From: Blepharisma japonicum
Lineage: Eukaryota; Ciliophora; Heterotrichea; Heterotrichida; Blepharismidae
Assembly (NCBI GenBank): GCA_949751835.1
Contig: CATKHK010000138.1
Location: 1 to 64,000 of the forward strand
DNA: 64,000 nucleotides
Direction: 5' to 3'
The translations under genes and the position numbers were made by a program. This document shows, one piece after another, positions 1 through 59,921 of the stretch. The stretch's first letter is position 1, and every line of letters begins with the position of its first letter. Below the pieces are notes generated by a model. The model did not search any database. It was given only the letters and a program-made list of their open reading frames with translations, and was not told the origin of the DNA.

Positions 1-1276
1 TATACACTTTAGAGCATGGTGCGCAAGTACCATCAGAGCTTGGGACAAATTCATTATCATCGCACTCAAGGCAAGTTGATTCATCGCAACTAATGCATAA
101 ATCACCAAACTTCTCAGAGCATAATTTGCATTTGCCATCGAGGCTCCAATAATAACCATCATCGCAATTTGTGCAAACATTTGGGTTTTCCTGACAGTCG
201 CTGCAATGATCAGGGCACTTGCTACATTTAAGAGAGTTAATGTAGTAACCACTTTGGCAGCTAATGCAGCCTTTTTGATTGCAATATGTGCACTTACTTG
301 AACAAGGCTGACATTTATAATTTTCATCTAAATAAAAGAGTGAATTGCATTTCATACATTGCCCTAAATGATTACATTCATTGCAATTTTCATCACAAAT
401 AGTGCATTTGCCGTCTGGAGTCAAATAAGTCTCAAGAGAGCAGGTTTTGCAACCTGATTTATCGCAATCCTCACAATGTGGAAAAGTTAAAGAGCAACTG
501 GTGCAATAAGAAAACCCATCAGTGCTATTTGAGTCTATATAATATTTTTCAGAGCAGACTTGGCATCCTGATTTGTCGCATTGTTTACAATTAGGAATTT
601 TTGAATTGCAATCCTCACAATAAGAAAACTCATCCAAAAAATATCCATCCATGCATTTAGTGCAAGAAGTCGCGTTGCATTTATCACAGTTATAATCGCA
701 TGGAAAGCATTCACTATCAGAGTCTTTATAATAATGATCTTCGCAGCTTATGCAGCCTGTTTGGTCGCAAGAAGCACAACCGTCTGGACATATAGTGCAT
801 TCTCCATCAGCATTTAGAGTGCCGATATTACAATGATGGCATGCTTTTTCATCACATGACCAACATTTTGGGAATTTCTTATGGCATTCAGCACAGCTCC
901 CAGTTTCACTGTCAAAGTATTGATCTTCATAACAGCCGTTAGCTTGAACTTTCCTTTTTGCTGGCATATATATTCTTCCATTTTTCAAAGACATACCAGG
1001 AGAAAAGTAGTTAGCTGGATATCCTAAAGTTATATGATATGAAAAAGGAGCTTCCATATCTTCTTCGTCTAGACTTTCAAATGAGTCAGAATCTATTCAT
1101 GAGGAATTTTGATTCAGGTCTATACTGTTAAGGTTTTTTTGGGTTTGAGATTTTTCAAAGTCTGTTGGGGATTGATTTTGATATTGATTTTCATCTTGAA
1201 AGTTAGTTGAATATTCTTTAGGGCTTTGAGATGCAACAAGTGCAATCTGAAAGGTTATCAAAAATATCAAAGCCAT
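1..1276 (-). CDS. Secreted cysteine-rich repeat protein, 3' end outside window
   Basis: The frame stays open from an ATG at 1276 to the left edge (about 425 codons) when TGA is read as Trp; the first in-frame TGA lies at 1097-1099. A hydrophobic signal peptide (MALIFLITFQIALVAS) is followed by a Gln/Asn/Ser-rich, Cys-free linker to about residue 105. After that come CxxC-type repeats of roughly 25-40 residues with the pattern C-x2-C-x(5-7)-C-x2-C-x4-C, like the furin-like or growth-factor-receptor Cys repeats common in ciliate surface proteins. It is a close paralogue of the gene at 5617-8125, with the same signal peptide and the linker motif NQYQN-SPTDF. By comparison with that gene, the missing part should hold further repeats and a short non-Cys C-terminal domain. 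I infer a secreted or surface protein; the ligand is unknown. The family call is firm, the function is not. Confidence 0.8.
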
Positions 1277-2128: not shown

Positions 2129-2303
2129 TTAATGGGCGCGATTAAATGTAAGACTGATATCGATTGGAAGATCACTTTCCTCTAAGTTAGTAATAAGAAT
2201 ATATTGTCTTGGAGATGCTTGATTCATATGCCATAATGAGGTATCATAATTCCCTAGACTCTTTATAATAATTTCTTTAAGATTTAGAGGTTCTGGAAGG
2301 TCA

Positions 2304-2550
2304 TAACTCTCAATTGAGCAGGTTTTTTTTTAAAGCAATAATAAGTAATCTACAAAATATTTAAATTGCATATATTTATCGGGAAATCAATTATTTTATA
2401 AATTTTGCATTTTAGAATATGCCTGTCTAAATTTCAGGAAATTTTATAATGATTATGATTAATAGTATTTAAAAATTATTCTCTTAATAATTTGTTAAGT
2501 TCCACAAAAGTAAGATTTTTCAATGTTTTTGTACTATCAAAGAACTTGAG
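2304..2550. other. 247-bp TA-flanked, IES-like insertion
   Basis: The paralogue at 5617-8125 has uninterrupted coding sequence here (LDFAYDLPEP). In this copy the alignment breaks exactly at a TA (2304-2305) and resumes exactly at a second TA (2551-2552). Removing the segment with one TA restores the frame and the identical peptide. The ends are partly inverted: TAactctcaattgag on the left, and TActcaagttc when the right end is read inward. The inside is AT-rich and non-coding. TA-bounded, precisely excised DNA is the hallmark of ciliate internal eliminated sequences made by domesticated PiggyBac or Tc1-type systems; that it is excised here is inference. Confidence 0.6.
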
Positions 2551-2704
2551 TAGGCAAAATCAAGGATAAGATTTCTATCTTCAAAATGGGTTTGATATCC
2601 TAATGAAATTTCTGAGGCGCAAGCTGATGACTCTTTATCTATTGAAGTGCCGCAAAGATAACACCTTGTATGAGGATCACAGCTATTACAAGACTCAGAG
2701 CAAG

Positions 2705-2720
2705 CTAAATAAATTCTTAC
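2705..2720 (-). other. 16-nt intron in the third paralogue
   Basis: On the minus strand it begins GTAAG and ends TTTAG. It sits at the same codon position as the intron at 5943-5958 of the intact paralogue and differs from it by one base. Without removal the frame is lost. Confidence 0.6.
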
Positions 2721-2818
2721 ATAAGCATTCTAAAATCCCTGAATCATCATAAAGAAAATACCCTTGATCGCATTTAGAGCATCCTGAAGACCCAAATTCA
2801 GTGCAATGTGAAGCAAAA

Positions 2819-2988
2819 TACTCAAGTCAACAATTAATTTATGTATTTGATAATGATTGCAAAACATATTTTTTAACTTTGCTAGACCTCTTTTCTTTAA
2901 CGGTTTTTACCCCACAAAATCCAGATAAAAATTAGTGAGCTTAAACTGAATTCTCTATTTGCCTTTTCTCTTTTGGCTTTTAAGTAAT
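2819..2988. other. 170-bp TA-flanked, IES-like insertion
   Basis: On the minus strand the coding frame around FGKANRSSI runs into a stop just past a TA at 2989-2990 and would resume at the TA at 2819-2820 with YFASHCTEFG. Excision gives one continuous in-frame sequence. The end TActcaagt is identical over 9 bases to the inward-read right end of the 2304-2550 insertion, which suggests a shared terminal signal. There is no paralogue alignment upstream of this junction, so this call is weaker than the first. Confidence 0.45.
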
Positions 2989-4093
2989 TATATGCTACTT
3001 CTATTTGCTTTGCCGAATAATATAACATCAGAAACGCAGAAATCTTGGTTTTCAGGATGCAATGGTTGGATTATATCACATTCATAAGCAATGAGAGGGT
3101 CTAATAATAAATATTAAGAATTATAAGAGAAGTAATAATAAAATACTCTTATCGAGAATATAAAAGACTCAGTGATTTCTAAAGCACTTAGCTTTAGAGC
3201 CGCTCTCTTAAAGGCTAAATAGTAGTATTTTTAAATGAATTAGAACAATCATTAGGAAATAAGACTTTCATTTGAGCAACCCCATAAGCGGGTGAATAGC
3301 TCGCTGAATTTCAAATTTGGTCTTAATAAGGAACAGCTATATAAAATTAAAAATTAAATTAACTCAGCATGAAAAGATTAAATTTCATTGTGCAGGAAAC
3401 ATCATTACATTTTAAACAGTTTTCGATGCATTTGACACAAGCTCCATCTGTGTCCATGAAATAGCCTGAATAGCATTCATTACAGCTTGTTCGGTTGCAG
3501 GTATTACAATATACTGGACATGTGAATCCGTCACTGCTTAGGAATAAATTATAATTACATTGGTTGCATGCTGTTTCATTGCAAGTATAGCATGTAGAGA
3601 ACTTTGAACGACAATTAGTACATAAACCAGTTTTGCTGTCAAGAAATTGATCATAAAAGCAGCCGTTTGACTGCAATTGTCTTTCTGTTGCGGTAGAGTT
3701 TAAATCTTGAAGATTTCTGCCAGCCATAGTGTTATATGGATATTGGTTCTCGAAAAAATCTTTTGGCCTTCTTTAAGATTTGCATATAACGGGGCGAATT
3801 GGGAATTTGAGCTCCTATTGGATCTTTAGGAAGCTCATTTGGGTTTCAGTATTGACCAATGTCTGCTGGATAATTCTGATTCTGGCTTCTTCCTGAAGGG
3901 TAATTAGATTCTGACTTCTTCCTGGAGGATAATATTGGTATTGAGATCCTCCAAAACTAAGAAGTGGCTGATTCATGGCTTCTCTTCCATTATCATAGTT
4001 TTTTGATTGATCATTAGGGCGTTGACTTGAATATGCAAATGCCAGCTGTAAAAACGCAAGAAAAACAAAAACCATTATAATTATTCTACACAA

Positions 4094-5616: not shown

Positions 5617-8125
5617 CTAACCACGATTAAACTTGAATCTGACATCGATAGGAAGATCACTGTCTTGAAGGTTAGTAGAAATCATATATTGCCTTGGAGT
5701 TACTTGAGTCATATGCCATGACGAGGTGTCATAATTCCCTGGACTCTTTATAATAATTTCTTTAAGGCTCAGTGGCTCTGGGAGATCATAAGCAAAGTCA
5801 AGGATTAGGTTTCCATCTTCAAAACTCGTCAAGTACCCAACTGAGTTATCGGAAGTACAAGTTGATGACTCTTTCTCTATTGTAGTCCCACAAAGATAGC
5901 ATCCAGGATGAGGATCGCAGCTATTGCAAGACTCAGAACAAGCTAAATAAAATCTTACATAAACATTCTAAGACTCCAGAATTATCATAAAGGAAATGCC
6001 CTTGTTCACATTTAGAACACCCTGAAGTTCCATATTCAGCACAATTTAATATTGGATTTTCTATTGTTGAATTCGGTAAGAATGAACCCTCACAGCGAAA
6101 TGTAGCTGAGTTATAAGTCATATTTCCAATACAAGAGCAGGACCCATTCAAATTATTCACCATATAGTAAGCATCTAAACAAGCTTCACATACTTGTATG
6201 CTATTTCTGCAATCTGCACATCCAGGCGCACAAGGCTGACAAGCTCTGGGGTACTGGTAATCAAGCCAATAGCCAGGAGCGCACTCGCACTCTCCCAAAA
6301 CGTTTTCTCTCATATTTTTATCCCCCGAGCACTTTAGTGGCAAAATACATTTGATCGATTTGCCATAAAATAAGTCCACTACTTCACAAGTTTTACAACC
6401 AAAATCTGAGCAAGGCTGGCAAGTATGCGAGTATCCAATAGCATAAGAATTTGATTTACAAGAGCAGGTTCCATCTCCATTGTTTATCATATTTGCAGCC
6501 CAACACTTACTGCAGCTAGTAGGACTGTTACAATTTCTGCATCCGTAAGAACACAGTTTTCGAGAATTTGTAGCGGCATTTCAATAAGTACCTGCAGCGC
6601 TAAAAAGTTCACAAGTTCCATCTTGATATGGTTGTATTCAATTTTCACACTCTGAACAAGAATTTGAGTCATAACACCGTTTGCAGCCAGGTGCGCATGG
6701 TCTACATTTGTTTCCGTTGTAATCTCAGTAATAGTAATCATCACAAATCGAGCATCAAATACCACTACAATGTTGACAGTTTTTAAAAACTTCAGTACAT
6801 GGGACGCAGGTACCATTAGTATTTGGGACATAGTTATCTTTAACACAACCTAGGCAAGCTGTTTCTATGCAAGAATTGCATGATTCACCAAACTTCTCGG
6901 AGCATAATTTGCAGCTTCCATCGGAGCTTATATAATAGCCATTATTGCACATCATGCATCAATTTGGGTTTCCATCACAATACAGACAATTATCTGGGCA
7001 TTTAATGCATACAGAAGAGTCTATCCAATTCGTTGTGTAGCCGCTTTGGCATAAATTGCAGCCATTTTGATCGCAATTAAGACAATTACTTGGGCAAGGC
7101 TGGCATTTTTTATATTCATCTAAATAAAAAGATTGATTGCATTGTGTACATTGCCAAAAGTCTGTACATGTAATGCAATTATCATCACAACCATCAACGC
7201 AATGGCCACTTGAGCTTAAACGATACCCTCCTAAGCAATTTCTACAACCTGATTCGTCACAATCAGCACAATTAGGATATGTTAAATTGCAATGAGCGCA
7301 AAAAGGAAATCCATCGGCACTATATGATTTTAAAGTATAGCCTCAATGGCAAGCTTTGCATCCTGATTTGTCACATGTGGAACAATTAGGAATTCATGAA
7401 TAGCATGAAGTGCAGTGAGAAAGCTCATTCATAAAACTTCAATCGTTGCATTCCAGGCAAGAGTTTGCATCGCATTTCTTACAGTTCACATCACACGGTA
7501 AACACTCACCATCAGAGTCTTTATAATAAGAATCTTTGCAAGTAATGCATCCGGTTTGGTCACAAGTATCGCAGCCATCTGGACATAAAATGCATGTTTC
7601 GTCAGCAGTAAGATTGCCTTGAAGGCATGTATTGCAGCTTGTTTCATTGCATGACAAACACATCGGAAATTTCCTATGGCAGTAAATGCAGTTTGAAGTT
7701 CGACCATCGTAGTATTGTCCATAATTGCAGCGGTTATCTTGAAGCTTTCTTTCTCCTTGTGCTGATTCGTTTAAATCCTTTATTAAATTCCCACTACTAT
7801 TCGTACTGTTTCACAAATTATCAGCATCTTGGCTTGCTTTTAAATCTGTTGACTCTTCATTTGGATTTTGCTTTATTGACGACTCATTTGGGTCTTGCAC
7901 ATTTCTTGAGTCCTCGTCTACCTTGTATAGGGCTTCAAATGATTCTGAGTCCATTTGATTTTCGCCTCCTTCATTAAGGTAGTTTTGGGGATTTCCAAAA
8001 TCTGTTGGTGATTTATTCTGATACTGATTTTTGTCCTTAATATCAGTTTGATGTTCTGTAGAGCTTTGCGATTGATTTGATATAACAAATACGATCTGAA
8101 AGGCTATCAAAAATAATAAAGCCAT
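5617..8125 (-). CDS. Secreted cysteine-rich repeat protein, complete
   Basis: A single 830-residue frame runs from ATG 8125 to TAG 5617 once TGA is read as Trp (at least nine TGA codons) and one 16-nt intron at 5943-5958 is removed. Features in order: signal peptide MALLFLIAFQIVFVIS; a Gln/Asn/Ser-rich linker to about residue 130; roughly 15-20 Cys-rich repeats (C-x2-C, C-x2-C-x4-C) to about residue 750; then a Cys-poor domain of about 85 residues ending FKFNRG. No C-terminal membrane segment or GPI signal is evident, so it is probably secreted or held at the surface by partners. It is a paralogue of the genes at 1-1276 and 2129-4093. The Cys repeats resemble those of the giant protein encoded at 9547-19542. 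Ligand and role are unknown. Confidence 0.85.
5943..5958 (-). other. 16-nt spliceosomal intron
   Basis: Minus-strand sequence GTAAGATTTTATTTAG. Splicing turns a premature end into ECL-SCSESCNSC and opens the C-terminal domain. The same intron is conserved in the broken paralogue at 2705-2720. Its length and GTA...TAG borders match the tiny introns known from heterotrichs. Confidence 0.85.
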
Positions 8126-55613: not shown

Positions 55614-58178
55614 CGTTATTACAATTATCTATCGAAATTATAGTTCTAAGAAAAGTAAAGCCTAATTCTGTTCTGATTATGCATTTTGGTTCTTAGTTAA
55701 GATTGCTGAAGTTCAAATTGGTGAAAATTTATAATACTTGCTATAAATTATGCATTTCATGTAATAAAAAATCTAGCTTCAGTCCACATTATTAGGGAAT
55801 TGGTTAAGGTCATATAGACTTTAAAGTTTTACCTTAAGGCTTCATATATCTCTATTGTGTATCGCTATTTCTCTCATGCTAGAACAAAACTGGTGCTACA
55901 AAAAATACTTCTGTTCGCCTACTAATAATAAACTTCTATGTTCCTTCTGGGACTACGTACATAATGCAATTGATCCCTATTCTTTCTAAGGCAGGCCCTA
56001 TCTGTATTCTCATCTTCATTCTTGGTGTTGCACTGCTGGTCAACCTCTTTCCTTGAGATCCTTACTTCTTCAGTAATGTTGTCGCTGCATTGCATGATGA
56101 CAATCTTATACACCTTGACACATCGCCAACATTAAAGGACGCTTCTAATGAAATTATAAAGGAACAATGTGAACTTCGCTTCATCTCTTCATCACCTTTC
56201 TTTACAAATTTTGACAAATAAAATTCGGTGTGCAATCAAATCATCCTGCATCATATACTCTTGGCGGTTTTACTTACAGCTGCAACACTAACCACCTCTG
56301 CCAATCCCAAGGCCTTAAATCTCCTCCTCCTTCGGGGCTGAGATTGGTTTGTTTTTGCTTATTACTTTCCCACTTTGATCTCTAAAATTTCATGAGAATC
56401 AAATACTTTATGCCTTTTGGGAAATTGCTTATATTGACTGCTGTCACATAATGGTATCATTTTTACTAGACAAATCCTTTATTTTTATATCATCTTTCTC
56501 AATATCATTATCCTCTCTTGTGATTCTTTTTAAGATTTTATGAACAGCCTAGGTTAAATTATCTCTACTGCCATTTATAGTGTGACCATATGCAATCTCT
56601 TCAAAATCCAATAATTTTTCTTTTATAATTTCAATTTACTTCCTACTCTTTTTGGTTTTCGACGTTCTGCTAACAATTCATTGCTTAAATCTTCAATAAT
56701 CTCTTTTAAAAAATGTTTTCTTCTGAACTGAGATTGCAATGATTCATATTTTTAGTAAAATCCTCTGAATTAGTAATGCGTGCTTTGTATCATTTTGAAT
56801 ATGTTTAAATTGTATTGCAAGGTTTTGACTTTCAGATGATTCTTCTGCTAGTTTATTGTTTAATAATTAAATTCTTTTATTAATCTCTCATTTTCTATTG
56901 CTTTTGCTTCAAGCTCACTAGCTTGATCTTTAATCTTTTATTTTATAGATTGATTTTCAGCTAAGGGACTAATATTTTTCTCTTTAGCCTGCTCAACATC
57001 AGGTTTTAATTCTTTTAAATTGCCCTTCAGATTAGAATTTTCTTAATCTATTTGGTTGTTTTCTTTTTCAAGTACTTTAATTTTTTGATTTAAAGGATAA
57101 AACTCGGTCTCAGCACAGAGTTTTGTATTGTGGAATATATTTATATTCTCTATAAGTTGCATTTTATTATTTTCAAGACTTTAGACTTCCCTTTAAAAGC
57201 CTCTTATTAGATTTTTTTTATATTTTTCAACTACAAGGCAGTCTGATGAATTTATATTGACTATGTCAGAGAAACAAGAATAGAAAAGGATGAAATGAAA
57301 ATTAAGAAACAGTTGAAAAATCAATTTTAACACCATTCATCTCCTAATGAGATGAAAAATCTGAATGAACCTCTATCTGATAATCGTAGAAATCCATTTA
57401 TAACTGTTCTATAACTCTCAAACTCTTTATATATCATCCAGACTTAATAGATAGAGTTTGCAGTGAGAGCAATTTCCAATAAAACAGCCCAAATTGTAAG
57501 CCTATTCACCTAAATCTTCTTACAGACCTTGCAAAAATTGTCGACATCATGTTGGGAGAATCTAGATATGTACGGGGTAAGAGTAATAATCTTGGAGAAT
57601 TAATTTCCAGGTGGCGGAAAGACTGGTGCCTCTAGGCGTCTGACGGACCCATATAAACTCACTGTGTTCAAAGGAGAGTTGTAAAGGCCTAAACTTCTAT
57701 TATTGGGATTAACTCAGAGAGGTCATTTATTTGCTGAATAAAATTTGCAAACATCTAAAGTGGTCTAAATAGGCGATTGCAACCAAGCCTATACTTTCTA
57801 GCAGACGCTAAACGAGCATGATTTATGATAAAGTGTAAATATGAAGATGGCAGTATATAAATTATTTGAGCAGATATATGGTTATGTCTATTTAAGGAAA
57901 GACAAATTTGATGCAGATTTTTTACTATGAAAACTATAAAGCAAATCATCAGGTAGCCAATATAAGAATTTTGATAGCCTAAATTTTCCAAAGGGATTCT
58001 TGCCATTATTAATCCTGGAGTACTCAATTTATGCTAATTCAAGTAAAGCCCTAATCAATTATCTTTTATCATGAGAATGCAAATAATTTATTGAATATTT
58101 CTGTATTTAAGATTGTCTAAAAAACGAGATTAATGTACATTTTTTCATATAAATTAGCTATTTTAATAATAATTGTAG
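55614..58178. other. 2.6-kb relic-rich region without an intact gene
   Basis: On the minus strand I read a coiled-coil relic at 57180-56820, continued with frameshifts to about 56450, and a frame of about 100 codons at 56330-56020 (around FKALGLAEVVSVAAVSKTAK) that faintly recalls an Alba domain. A GC-richer patch at 57600-57700 has no recognisable RNA. Minus 58027-57755 begins at TTG and is not convincing. All frames are broken by TAA, TAG or shifts. Confidence 0.4.
56820..57180 (-). pseudogene. Coiled-coil protein relic
   Basis: About 120 codons with a heptad-like charged pattern (KIKVLEKENNQID, NSNLKGNLKELKPDVEQAKE, DQASELEAKAIENERL), broken by T-A-A codons after QID and SIK and by a frameshift near 56860, after which the coil continues in another frame. 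A similar relic lies at 60181-60790. No start or intact end is found. Confidence 0.5.
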
Positions 58179-59921
58179 ATGAATCAAAAGAAGTGCTTCG
58201 AGCCAGACTGCAAAAATGAAGTTGAGTATGCATGCAAATGCACCTCTCTTGAATCTTTCTTCTGTGAGCTGCATATCCAAGGGCATATTAAAAAGAAAAT
58301 AGTTGGCAGGGATCATTCAGTTGACTCTATTTTTGTAGAGCCTAATGAAGAGACAAAGCAAGCTGTTCTTAGATTTCTTATGAAAGAAGATTCAAAGTAT
58401 AAGAAGCTAAAGAAGTTAATTATAGATTCATTTAATCAGCGTCTAGCTAATTTAGGAGAAGAAGTAAGACAATACTCTAGAAATTTAGATACATTTTCAG
58501 CTAATATAGGAAATCTGGTTTTAAAAATTTGCAAAGCTAAAAAATTGTTAAAGTCAAACCGAGACTCAATTTCAGAGTTATTGACTTTACAGCCTGAAGA
58601 AGCTGTAAACAAAGTAAAATCGATAATCTCAGCCGAAAAGGATTGGTATAATGTTGCAAAGTTGTTTCATATATACAGTAAAAACTTAGAAAGTTCAATT
58701 GCATCTTTCGTTAATAAGAGATTTCAAACATTTCTTAATACTATGCTCTCCAATAAAGAAAGCAGTATTGAAGCAAATAATAAAACTATAAATTCGGCTA
58801 GGATTAAGGTAGCAAACATTGAGGATTCGACTTCTTTAAAAGCAAATGAGTACAGTGAGAGTTTAAAAGAGCTTCAAAATTTAATAAGATTCAAAATAGA
58901 GAATGAGAGTGAGGCAAGGCTGCTTAATTCTAAAATAAAATCCATTACTAGTGATATCAACAGTAAACTCGAAAAAATAGAAAGCCAATTAAATCTTATG
59001 AATATTAATGTCTTAAGACATAAAACAGCTGAGTTCTTGAGTAGACCAAACAATCGAGAATTAGAGATGGATTTCAGAGCAACTTGCTCAGCGTACCATA
59101 ACAATTCTAGTTTTTATGATCCAATGCTAGTGCAAGCTTACCAAGATTATCTTAATGCTTACCAACAAAAGACATCTCTTTATAATCTTAGAGAGAAGAA
59201 TAAGAGAACTGAAGTAACTATTTATATCACTGAAACTGAAACCAAAGAAGTCAAAATCTTGCAGACTCCAGAACCACTAGACCATTTCACTTGCATAACT
59301 CAACTTCCGAATGGCAAGCTATTCTGTTTTGGTAATTGACAACTTTCTGGAATTACATTGCTATTTGATGTGAATGGTAGAGTCAAAGTGCTGCCATCTG
59401 GAACTCATTGCTTTGACTCATCATGTATCTATTTCAACAACAGCGTCTATTGCTTTGGAGGATATGATGGGAATTATTTAACTCTATCTAGTAGATTTGA
59501 TTTGGATCAAAATCGATGAATTCAATTAATTCCATTGCCAAAAGCTGATTTTAGATGCAATAGTATAATATTTAATGGGGATATTTTGATTTCTGGATAT
59601 AAAAATAGAAATCTTTGGCTATACACAATTGATATTGACTCTTTCTCAACAATTCCTTATGCGTTTGCAGAAGATAAAGGAAAGATCCTGATAAATGCAG
59701 AGAGACTGTATTTAATTGAATATAATGGATCAATCTATGAAAGCGAAATTGGAAGTGATACGAAGTGGAAAAGAATAGCAGACATATATATAAAATTTGC
59801 TGATCAAGTGTATTGTTCATATAACAAAGGAGGAATATACATTGGGATAATAGATGAATACCATGTTATAGAGTACTTCAAGTTTGATTTGAATGCAAAG
59901 AGACTGATTAGATTAAAGTAA
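58179..59921 (+). CDS. Cys-His coiled-coil / Kelch-type protein
   Basis: 580 residues from ATG 58179 with TGA as Trp at two sites (FGN-W-QLSG, QNR-W-IQLI). Residues 1-45 are the Cys/His cluster (CFEPDCKNEVEYACKCTSLE, then CELHIQGH). About 50-375 is long coiled-coil helix with the shared marker LLTLQPEEAV. Residues about 376-580 hold Kelch/beta-propeller blades (QLPNGKLFCFGN, IYFNNSVYCFGGYDG, LYTIDIDSFSTIPY). The first half matches the middle of the kinase-TPR protein (52329-55613); the last blades match the start of the gene at 61679. By layout it is a scaffold, with no enzyme domain. Confidence 0.85.

What the first reader, a model, noticed from the sequence alone, without database searches (positions are those of the whole stretch)
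2129..4093. TA-flanked insertions split a coding region: candidate retained IESs
Comparison with the intact paralogue shows a 247-bp insertion bounded by TA at 2304 and 2551 whose precise removal restores the peptide. A second (2819-2988) and two possible ones (3102-3259, 3297-3359) likewise rejoin frames at TA. Two ends share the 9-mer TActcaagt. This is what TA-bounded internal eliminated sequences look like. Either the window is germline sequence, or these IESs escaped excision in a somatic assembly, or a dead gene keeps old ones. Coding genes elsewhere in the window are IES-free, which argues for somatic DNA with local retention.
Basis: partly seen in the sequence, partly recalled or inferred. 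Interest (0 to 1): 0.75.

Follow-up and report, generated by a model that had tools for sequence, protein, structure and literature searches.

The report
Retained TA-flanked insert in dead gene
One dead copy of a cysteine-rich protein gene in a Blepharisma-like ciliate's working (somatic) genome carries a 247-base insert with the ends of the DNA segments ciliates normally cut out, most simply such a segment or a small transposon that was left in because the gene is already broken; the other inserts proposed could not be confirmed.

Summary
The genome is Blepharisma-like (TGA read as Trp, CCCTAACA telomere, 15-16-nt introns). The window looks somatic: 22 long open frames cover 40.6 kb, where germline DNA at B. 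stoltei IES density would carry about 36 IESs (frames were picked for being open, so the probability is only a guide).

Insert 1 (2304-2550, 247 bp) is real. Four paralogues lack it, a TA sits at each end, and leaving it out keeps the C-terminal exon in frame. A random insertion looks TA-bounded 3.4% of the time. Only one copy was found; ungapped comparison shows no terminal inverted repeat.

The other three segments are not supported. The middle (about 2820-3390) has no detected homology, and one 541-bp TA-TA excision rejoins the frame as well as three. The shared 9-mer TACTCAAGT is modest evidence for an element end at 2819.

Leaving out the proposed inserts does not revive the gene: it is frameshifted near its start and lacks about 460 residues.

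Best reading: an IES-type, TA-targeted insert left in the soma because excision no longer matters in a dead gene. Paramecium offers precedents. Reads are needed to tell failed excision from a never-excised element.

The parts
2304..2550 (.). Insert 1: 247-bp TA-bounded insertion (TA 2304-2305 and 2551-2552), 21% GC, one copy found in the assembly
   Evidence: absent from 4 paralogues and from a dead copy; one match in the genome search; 3.4% chance of a TA-bounded look
2138..2303 (-). C-terminal exon, downstream half
   Evidence: 74-82% nucleotide identity to paralogues; open frame
2551..2702 (-). C-terminal exon, upstream half
   Evidence: 77-81% identity to paralogues over about 2551-2808; its frame joins 2138-2303 when 2304-2550 is left out
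2705..2720 (-). 16-nt intron GTAAGAATTTATTTAG, at the same place as 16-nt introns in three paralogues and a 15-nt one in a fourth
2819..3359 (.). Middle stretch without detected homology; its left end TACTCAAGT repeats the right end of insert 1; could be one 541-bp TA-TA insertion, several, or filler
   Evidence: no homology; TA-pair counts; motif count
3392..3751 (-). Cysteine-rich repeats of the dead copy
   Evidence: 39-48% amino-acid identity to four family loci
3773..3922 (-). Frameshifted stretch: 29-bp-spaced repeat starting at 3922 and 3893, stops TAG 3815-3817 and TAA 3773-3775 in the starting frame; no 15/16-nt GT-AG intron lies in 3380-4075
   Evidence: the frame changes were judged by eye against the C48_323 protein
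3818..4075 (-). Start of the dead copy (ATG at 4075; hydrophobic, signal-peptide-like by eye)
5620..8125 (-). Intact paralogue used for comparison (830 aa with one 16-nt intron left out)

Best explanation
The 2129-4093 gene is a decayed member of a tandem cysteine-rich protein family in the somatic genome of a Blepharisma-like ciliate. The 247-bp segment 2304-2550 is an IES-type insertion: in the germline it entered at a TA and duplicated it. In a live gene such a segment is cut out at the TAs during macronuclear development. Here it is present in the somatic sequence, most likely because excision has failed or weakened and, in a gene already broken by frameshifts and an internal deletion, nothing selects against that. 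Shown: the insertion, the TA pair, its absence from four paralogues, and lesions of the gene outside the insert. Well supported: the somatic nature of the window. Inferred: insertion in the germline, past excision, and loss of excision by neutral decay.
For: Four of four live paralogues aligned here lack it, with the joint at TA. The exon reads in frame when it is left out. Pairwise dN/dS of that exon against the four is 0.14-0.24, upper bootstrap bounds 0.26-0.40 (dS is 0.8-1.3, so rough), so the exon evolved as coding sequence for much of its history. The 247-bp length sits near the 255-bp median of B. stoltei IESs, of which about three quarters are TA-bound (PMC9942856, Results). The rest of the window looks somatic. 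The gene's other lesions are independent of the insert. Paramecium precedents: among quartet paralogues 6 cases of IES 'recruitment into the exon sequence' and 23 deletions, often marking a pseudogene; one IES assembled into the MAC reference (PMC3464196, passages).
Against: TA ends arise by chance in 3.4% of random insertions. Insert 1 has no ungapped TIR: 4 of 15 end positions match, P = 0.93. Its GC (21%) is that of local intergenic DNA, below the 33% average of B. stoltei IESs. No relative was found in the assembly and no empty copy of this locus. Both TAs are intact, so the cause of retention is unknown. The defining property of an IES, elimination from the soma, is not seen in this sequence. 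No reads were available.
Confidence: 0.5

Rival explanations
1. Insert 1 is a non-autonomous TA-target transposon (Tc1/mariner-type MITE remnant) that landed in an already dead gene and was never subject to excision.
For: A TA duplication is equally expected; a dead gene tolerates it; germline MITEs are known in Blepharisma (PMC9942856).
Against: No ungapped TIR, no second copy found in the assembly, no strong hairpin in either half (fold z-scores 0.44 and -1.02). In Blepharisma the described MITEs are largely IESs themselves, so the two ideas overlap.
Confidence: 0.25
2. Insert 1 is an ordinary insertion (repair filler or other decay) in a pseudogene, and the TA pair is chance.
For: 3.4% of random insertions look TA-bounded. 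The copy has other plain lesions: a 29-bp-spaced duplication, frame changes and a large internal deletion. GC of 21% is close to that of local intergenic DNA, 23%.
Against: The joint falls exactly on TA in the alignments to three paralogues. The end 9-mer TACTCAAGT recurs at 2819.
Confidence: 0.2
3. The contig carries germline (micronuclear) sequence, as the finding's first option.
For: Only the insert itself.
Against: 22 open frames covering 40.6 kb, where about 36 IESs are expected at B. stoltei density; the 9,996-bp ORF alone expects 8.8 (frames selected for being open). No BogoMITE TIR in the assembly with up to 1 mismatch, though that element is known from B. stoltei and this may be another species.
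Confidence: 0.02
4. The insert is an intron or a lineage-specific extra exon.
For: It lies inside a coding exon.
Against: The family's introns are 15-16 nt with GT-AG ends, as in B. stoltei (PMC9942806). The insert has TA, not GT-AG, ends and contains stops in the three frames read.
Confidence: 0.03

Closest known systems
TA-bound IESs of Blepharisma stoltei (PMC9942856)
   Same: TA at both ends, intragenic, length near the median (247 vs 255 bp), no single conserved end motif
   Different: Present in the somatic assembly; excision not shown; GC 21% against 33% average for B. stoltei IESs
Paramecium IES recruited into an exon, or retained in the MAC (PMC3464196)
   Same: A TA-bounded segment kept in somatic DNA in one paralogue only
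   Different: Here no paralogue is shown to carry an excised version; the host gene is dead
BogoMITE and other MITIES of Blepharisma (PMC9942856)
   Same: Short non-coding insert in a gene
   Different: No TIR found, TA rather than TAA/TTA duplication, one copy found

Membership tests
Ciliate IES (TA-bound) | TA direct repeat at both ends, one copy left after removal | tested here: met
   Insert 1 only; the other three proposed segments had no empty site to compare with
Ciliate IES (TA-bound) | Removal restores the flanking coding frame | tested here: met
   C-terminal exon only; not the whole gene
Ciliate IES (TA-bound) | Eliminated from the somatic genome | tested here: not met
   Present in the somatic consensus; no empty copy of the locus found in the assembly. 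Partial excision not testable without reads
Ciliate IES (TA-bound) | Targeted by development-specific small RNAs or by the excisase | not testable with these tools
   no small-RNA or knock-down data
Tc1/mariner-type MITE | Terminal inverted repeats | tested here: not met
   4 of 15 end positions match, P = 0.93, ungapped; none of the 3 inverted pairs in 2290-2570 is terminal. Gapped end matches were not tested
Tc1/mariner-type MITE | Multiple related copies | tested here: not met
   one match in the 45.2-Mb somatic assembly (the tool's counts are lower bounds); the germline genome was not available
Spliceosomal intron of Blepharisma | 15-16 nt with GT-AG ends | tested here: not met
   247 bp with TA ends

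The most novel reading that the evidence does not exclude
Dead genes in a heterotrich somatic genome act as a record of IESs whose excision has been lost neutrally: 2304-2550 and a 541-bp segment 2819-3359 (sharing the end TACTCAAGT) are fossil IESs of one end-family kept in the soma. Excision would then be maintained only by selection on the host gene.
Probability: 0.2. Interest if true: 0.5.

Novelty: new member of a known kind. Interest (0 to 1): 0.3.

Why it matters
If reads confirm it, this gives a clean locus for asking whether IES excision decays when a gene no longer needs it. Dead copies in somatic ciliate assemblies could then be mined for former IESs. As it stands it is one well-supported insert, with known parallels in Paramecium.

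Tried and rejected
Tried without result: relatives of the inserts in the genome; the BogoMITE TIR as a marker of germline DNA (0 hits with up to 1 mismatch); TIRs and hairpins in insert 1; an excess of TACT/AGTA in 2810-3400 (7 against a shuffled mean of about 4.8, P = 0.20). A 28-nt imperfect inverted repeat at 3140-3167/3204-3231 (20 of 28; 1 of 40 shuffles reaches it) lies inside the proposed third segment but gives no TA-exact limits. Pfam gave no family at E 0.001 for the 734-aa intact frame.

Looked for the same thing elsewhere. In 130 kb compared with itself (70 kb of C138, 50 kb of C48, 10 kb of C224) insert 1 was the only clean large insertion by my reading of the list. The gaps at C138:66-69k (about 95-120 and 300 bp) fit whole 102-bp repeat units by size, and those at C48:329-335k lie in what look like internally repeated genes; I did not translate or check either. 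Four further regions (C48:290001-300000 and C221-C223) were fetched and not analysed. Of the 50 domain matches (two are the halves of this copy), I fetched 6 of the partial ones and one full one. In 5 of the 6 the missing part lies 10-66 bp away, without room for an insert of this size; in the sixth (C116) the rest of the domain was not found. The other partial matches were not fetched. The dead copy at C48:348.2k has a 42-43-bp insertion: it is TAT-bounded only if an extra T in the neighbouring T run is a separate change; at the exact paralogue length the end repeat is a single T (read by eye). I therefore do not count it.

Changes private to the dead copy in the C-terminal exon are 9 synonymous and 19 non-synonymous; the site-corrected ratio is 0.30, against 0.00, 0.00, 0.13 and 0.18 in the four live copies (this copy was compared with four others, each live copy with three). 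This fits constraint followed by relaxation but rests on small counts.

Dropped before a count: one of the 23 ORFs (58163-58945, minus strand, antisense to a longer ORF) was left out of the 22.

Organism: no rRNA match was obtained, so Blepharisma-like rests on code, telomere, introns, GC and genome size. The assembly (45.2 Mb, 224 contigs) differs from the published 41-Mb B. stoltei assembly and may be another strain, species or version.

Full report
Setting. The window is the first 64 kb of a 72,232-bp contig (C138) of a 45.2-Mb, 224-contig assembly. Reading TGA as Trp lengthens the longest frame from 2,669 to 3,332 codons, against 2,700 if TAA and TAG are read as Gln. The repeat CCCTAACA (three units) has 168 overlapping pattern hits against 0 for the reversed control; in the part of the list shown, those on C36, C47, C69, C78, C80 and C89 begin within 8 bases of the contig start. 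Introns of 15-16 nt lie at matching places in the family. GC is about 32%. These traits match the published Blepharisma stoltei somatic genome (PMC9942806: abstract, one Results section and passages seen), though this assembly is larger and in more pieces.

Somatic, not germline. B. stoltei has 39,799 IESs on a 41-Mb somatic genome, about 70% of them intragenic (PMC9942856: abstract, two of three parts of the Results, one Discussion section and passages seen). At that density 22 open frames of the window (40.6 kb) would hold about 36 IESs, and the 9,996-bp ORF alone 8.8. They are open throughout. The frames were picked for being open, so the formal probability (3e-16) overstates the case, but frames covering 63% of the window could hardly exist in germline DNA of that density. 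The argument assumes that this species has a comparable density.

The gene. 2129-4093 (minus strand) belongs to a tandem array of cysteine-rich proteins with neighbours at 1-1275 and 5620-8125 and on C48 at 323k, 344k and 349k. The C-terminal domain has 50 matches in the genome, two of them the halves of this copy. This copy has a signal-peptide-like start, a block of cysteine repeats and the C-terminal domain; residues 224-684 of the paralogue between them found no counterpart. Pfam has no family for the intact frame at E 0.001.

Insert 1. DNA alignments to four paralogues stop at 2305-2306 and resume at 2551-2555 while the paralogues are continuous, with a 2-3-base overlap in three and a 2-base gap in the fourth. 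All four paralogues read CATA at the site, and TA is present at both edges of the 247-bp unit. Leaving out 2304-2550 gives a 108-codon open frame in line with the paralogues. In 40,000 simulated insertions of local non-coding DNA into the paralogue, 3.4% show a TA-containing end repeat. The insert has 21% GC, like local intergenic DNA (23%), no ungapped TIR (4 of 15, P = 0.93), and one match in the genome search, itself.

The other segments. From about 2820 to 3390 nothing resembles the family: translated pieces give only very short matches. The DNA search (E up to 1) and the search with the 41-aa open piece (E up to 10) find only the locus itself. The proposed limits therefore rest on frame alone. 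TA pairs that rejoin the frame number 4 of 158 (segment 2), 1 of 169 (segment 3, not at the quoted limits), 1 of 463 (segments 3 and 4 as one) and 2 of 808 for a single excision across the stretch, namely 2819-3359 and 2835-3378; segment 4 alone was not tested. One 541-bp insertion is as good as three. The positive sign is TACTCAAGT, found twice in the window, at 2544-2552 on the minus strand and 2819-2827 on the plus strand, both reading inward from a proposed end (0.52 expected, 9 of 100 shuffles with two or more). Nine leading identical bases were reached by none of about 20,000 random TA-started pairs, but over 15 bases the match is unremarkable (9 of 15, P = 0.06), and the end was chosen after the fact.

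The gene is dead anyway. By eye, the N-terminal part changes frame twice relative to the paralogue C48_323; a repeat spaced 29 bp (starts 3922 and 3893) probably causes the first change. In the starting frame there are stops at 3815-3817 and 3773-3775, and no 15- or 16-nt GT-AG stretch exists in 3380-4075 to remove them. Pairwise dN/dS of the C-terminal exon is 0.14-0.24, and the ratio on changes private to this copy is 0.30 against 0.00-0.18 for the four live copies. This fits past constraint and later relaxation, on small counts.

How it most likely works. A TA-targeted element inserted in the germline copy. In live genes such segments are excised at TA during development. Here the somatic sequence keeps it, and in a gene with other lesions failed excision costs nothing. 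Insertion in the germline and past excision are inferred. Arnaiz et al. 2012 (PMC3464196, passages seen) report IESs recruited into exons (6 cases), deletions that often mark a pseudogene (23 cases), an IES assembled into the MAC reference, and that any mutation of a flanking TA abolishes excision. The Blepharisma authors note that excision is a continuum and that assemblies present an oversimplified view of partly retained IESs (PMC9942856, passage). Here both TAs are intact, so a TA mutation is not the cause of retention.

What is not shown. No reads, germline sequence or small RNAs were available. The defining IES property, somatic elimination, is not met in this consensus, so I do not file the insert as an IES; it is IES-like. 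Paper searches for IES retention with pseudogenes and for somatic retention listed 4 and 1 papers; I make no claim of priority.

Noticed in passing
C48:349411-350344 and window 1-1275: C48 ends and C138 begins inside the same kind of gene; judged by eye against the C48_344 protein the two pieces would join with about 76 residues missing, so the contigs are probably neighbours broken in the tandem array.
   Followed up: partly
C48:348155-348415: Another dead copy of the C-terminal domain, with a 42-43-bp insertion that is TAT-bounded only if one extra T is a separate change.
   Followed up: partly
C48:346977-347271: A third, strongly decayed copy of the same domain with stops, without a large insertion between its two matched pieces.
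   Followed up: partly
window 3140-3231: Imperfect inverted repeat (20 of 28 pairs; 1 of 40 shuffles reaches it) with ends AAAATACT / AGTATTTT inside the unexplained middle stretch.
   Followed up: partly
C138:66000-69000: Repeated sequence whose copies differ by gaps of about 95-120 and 300 bp, which by size fits whole 102-bp (34-residue) repeat units such as the TPR-like genes nearby; not translated.
   Followed up: no
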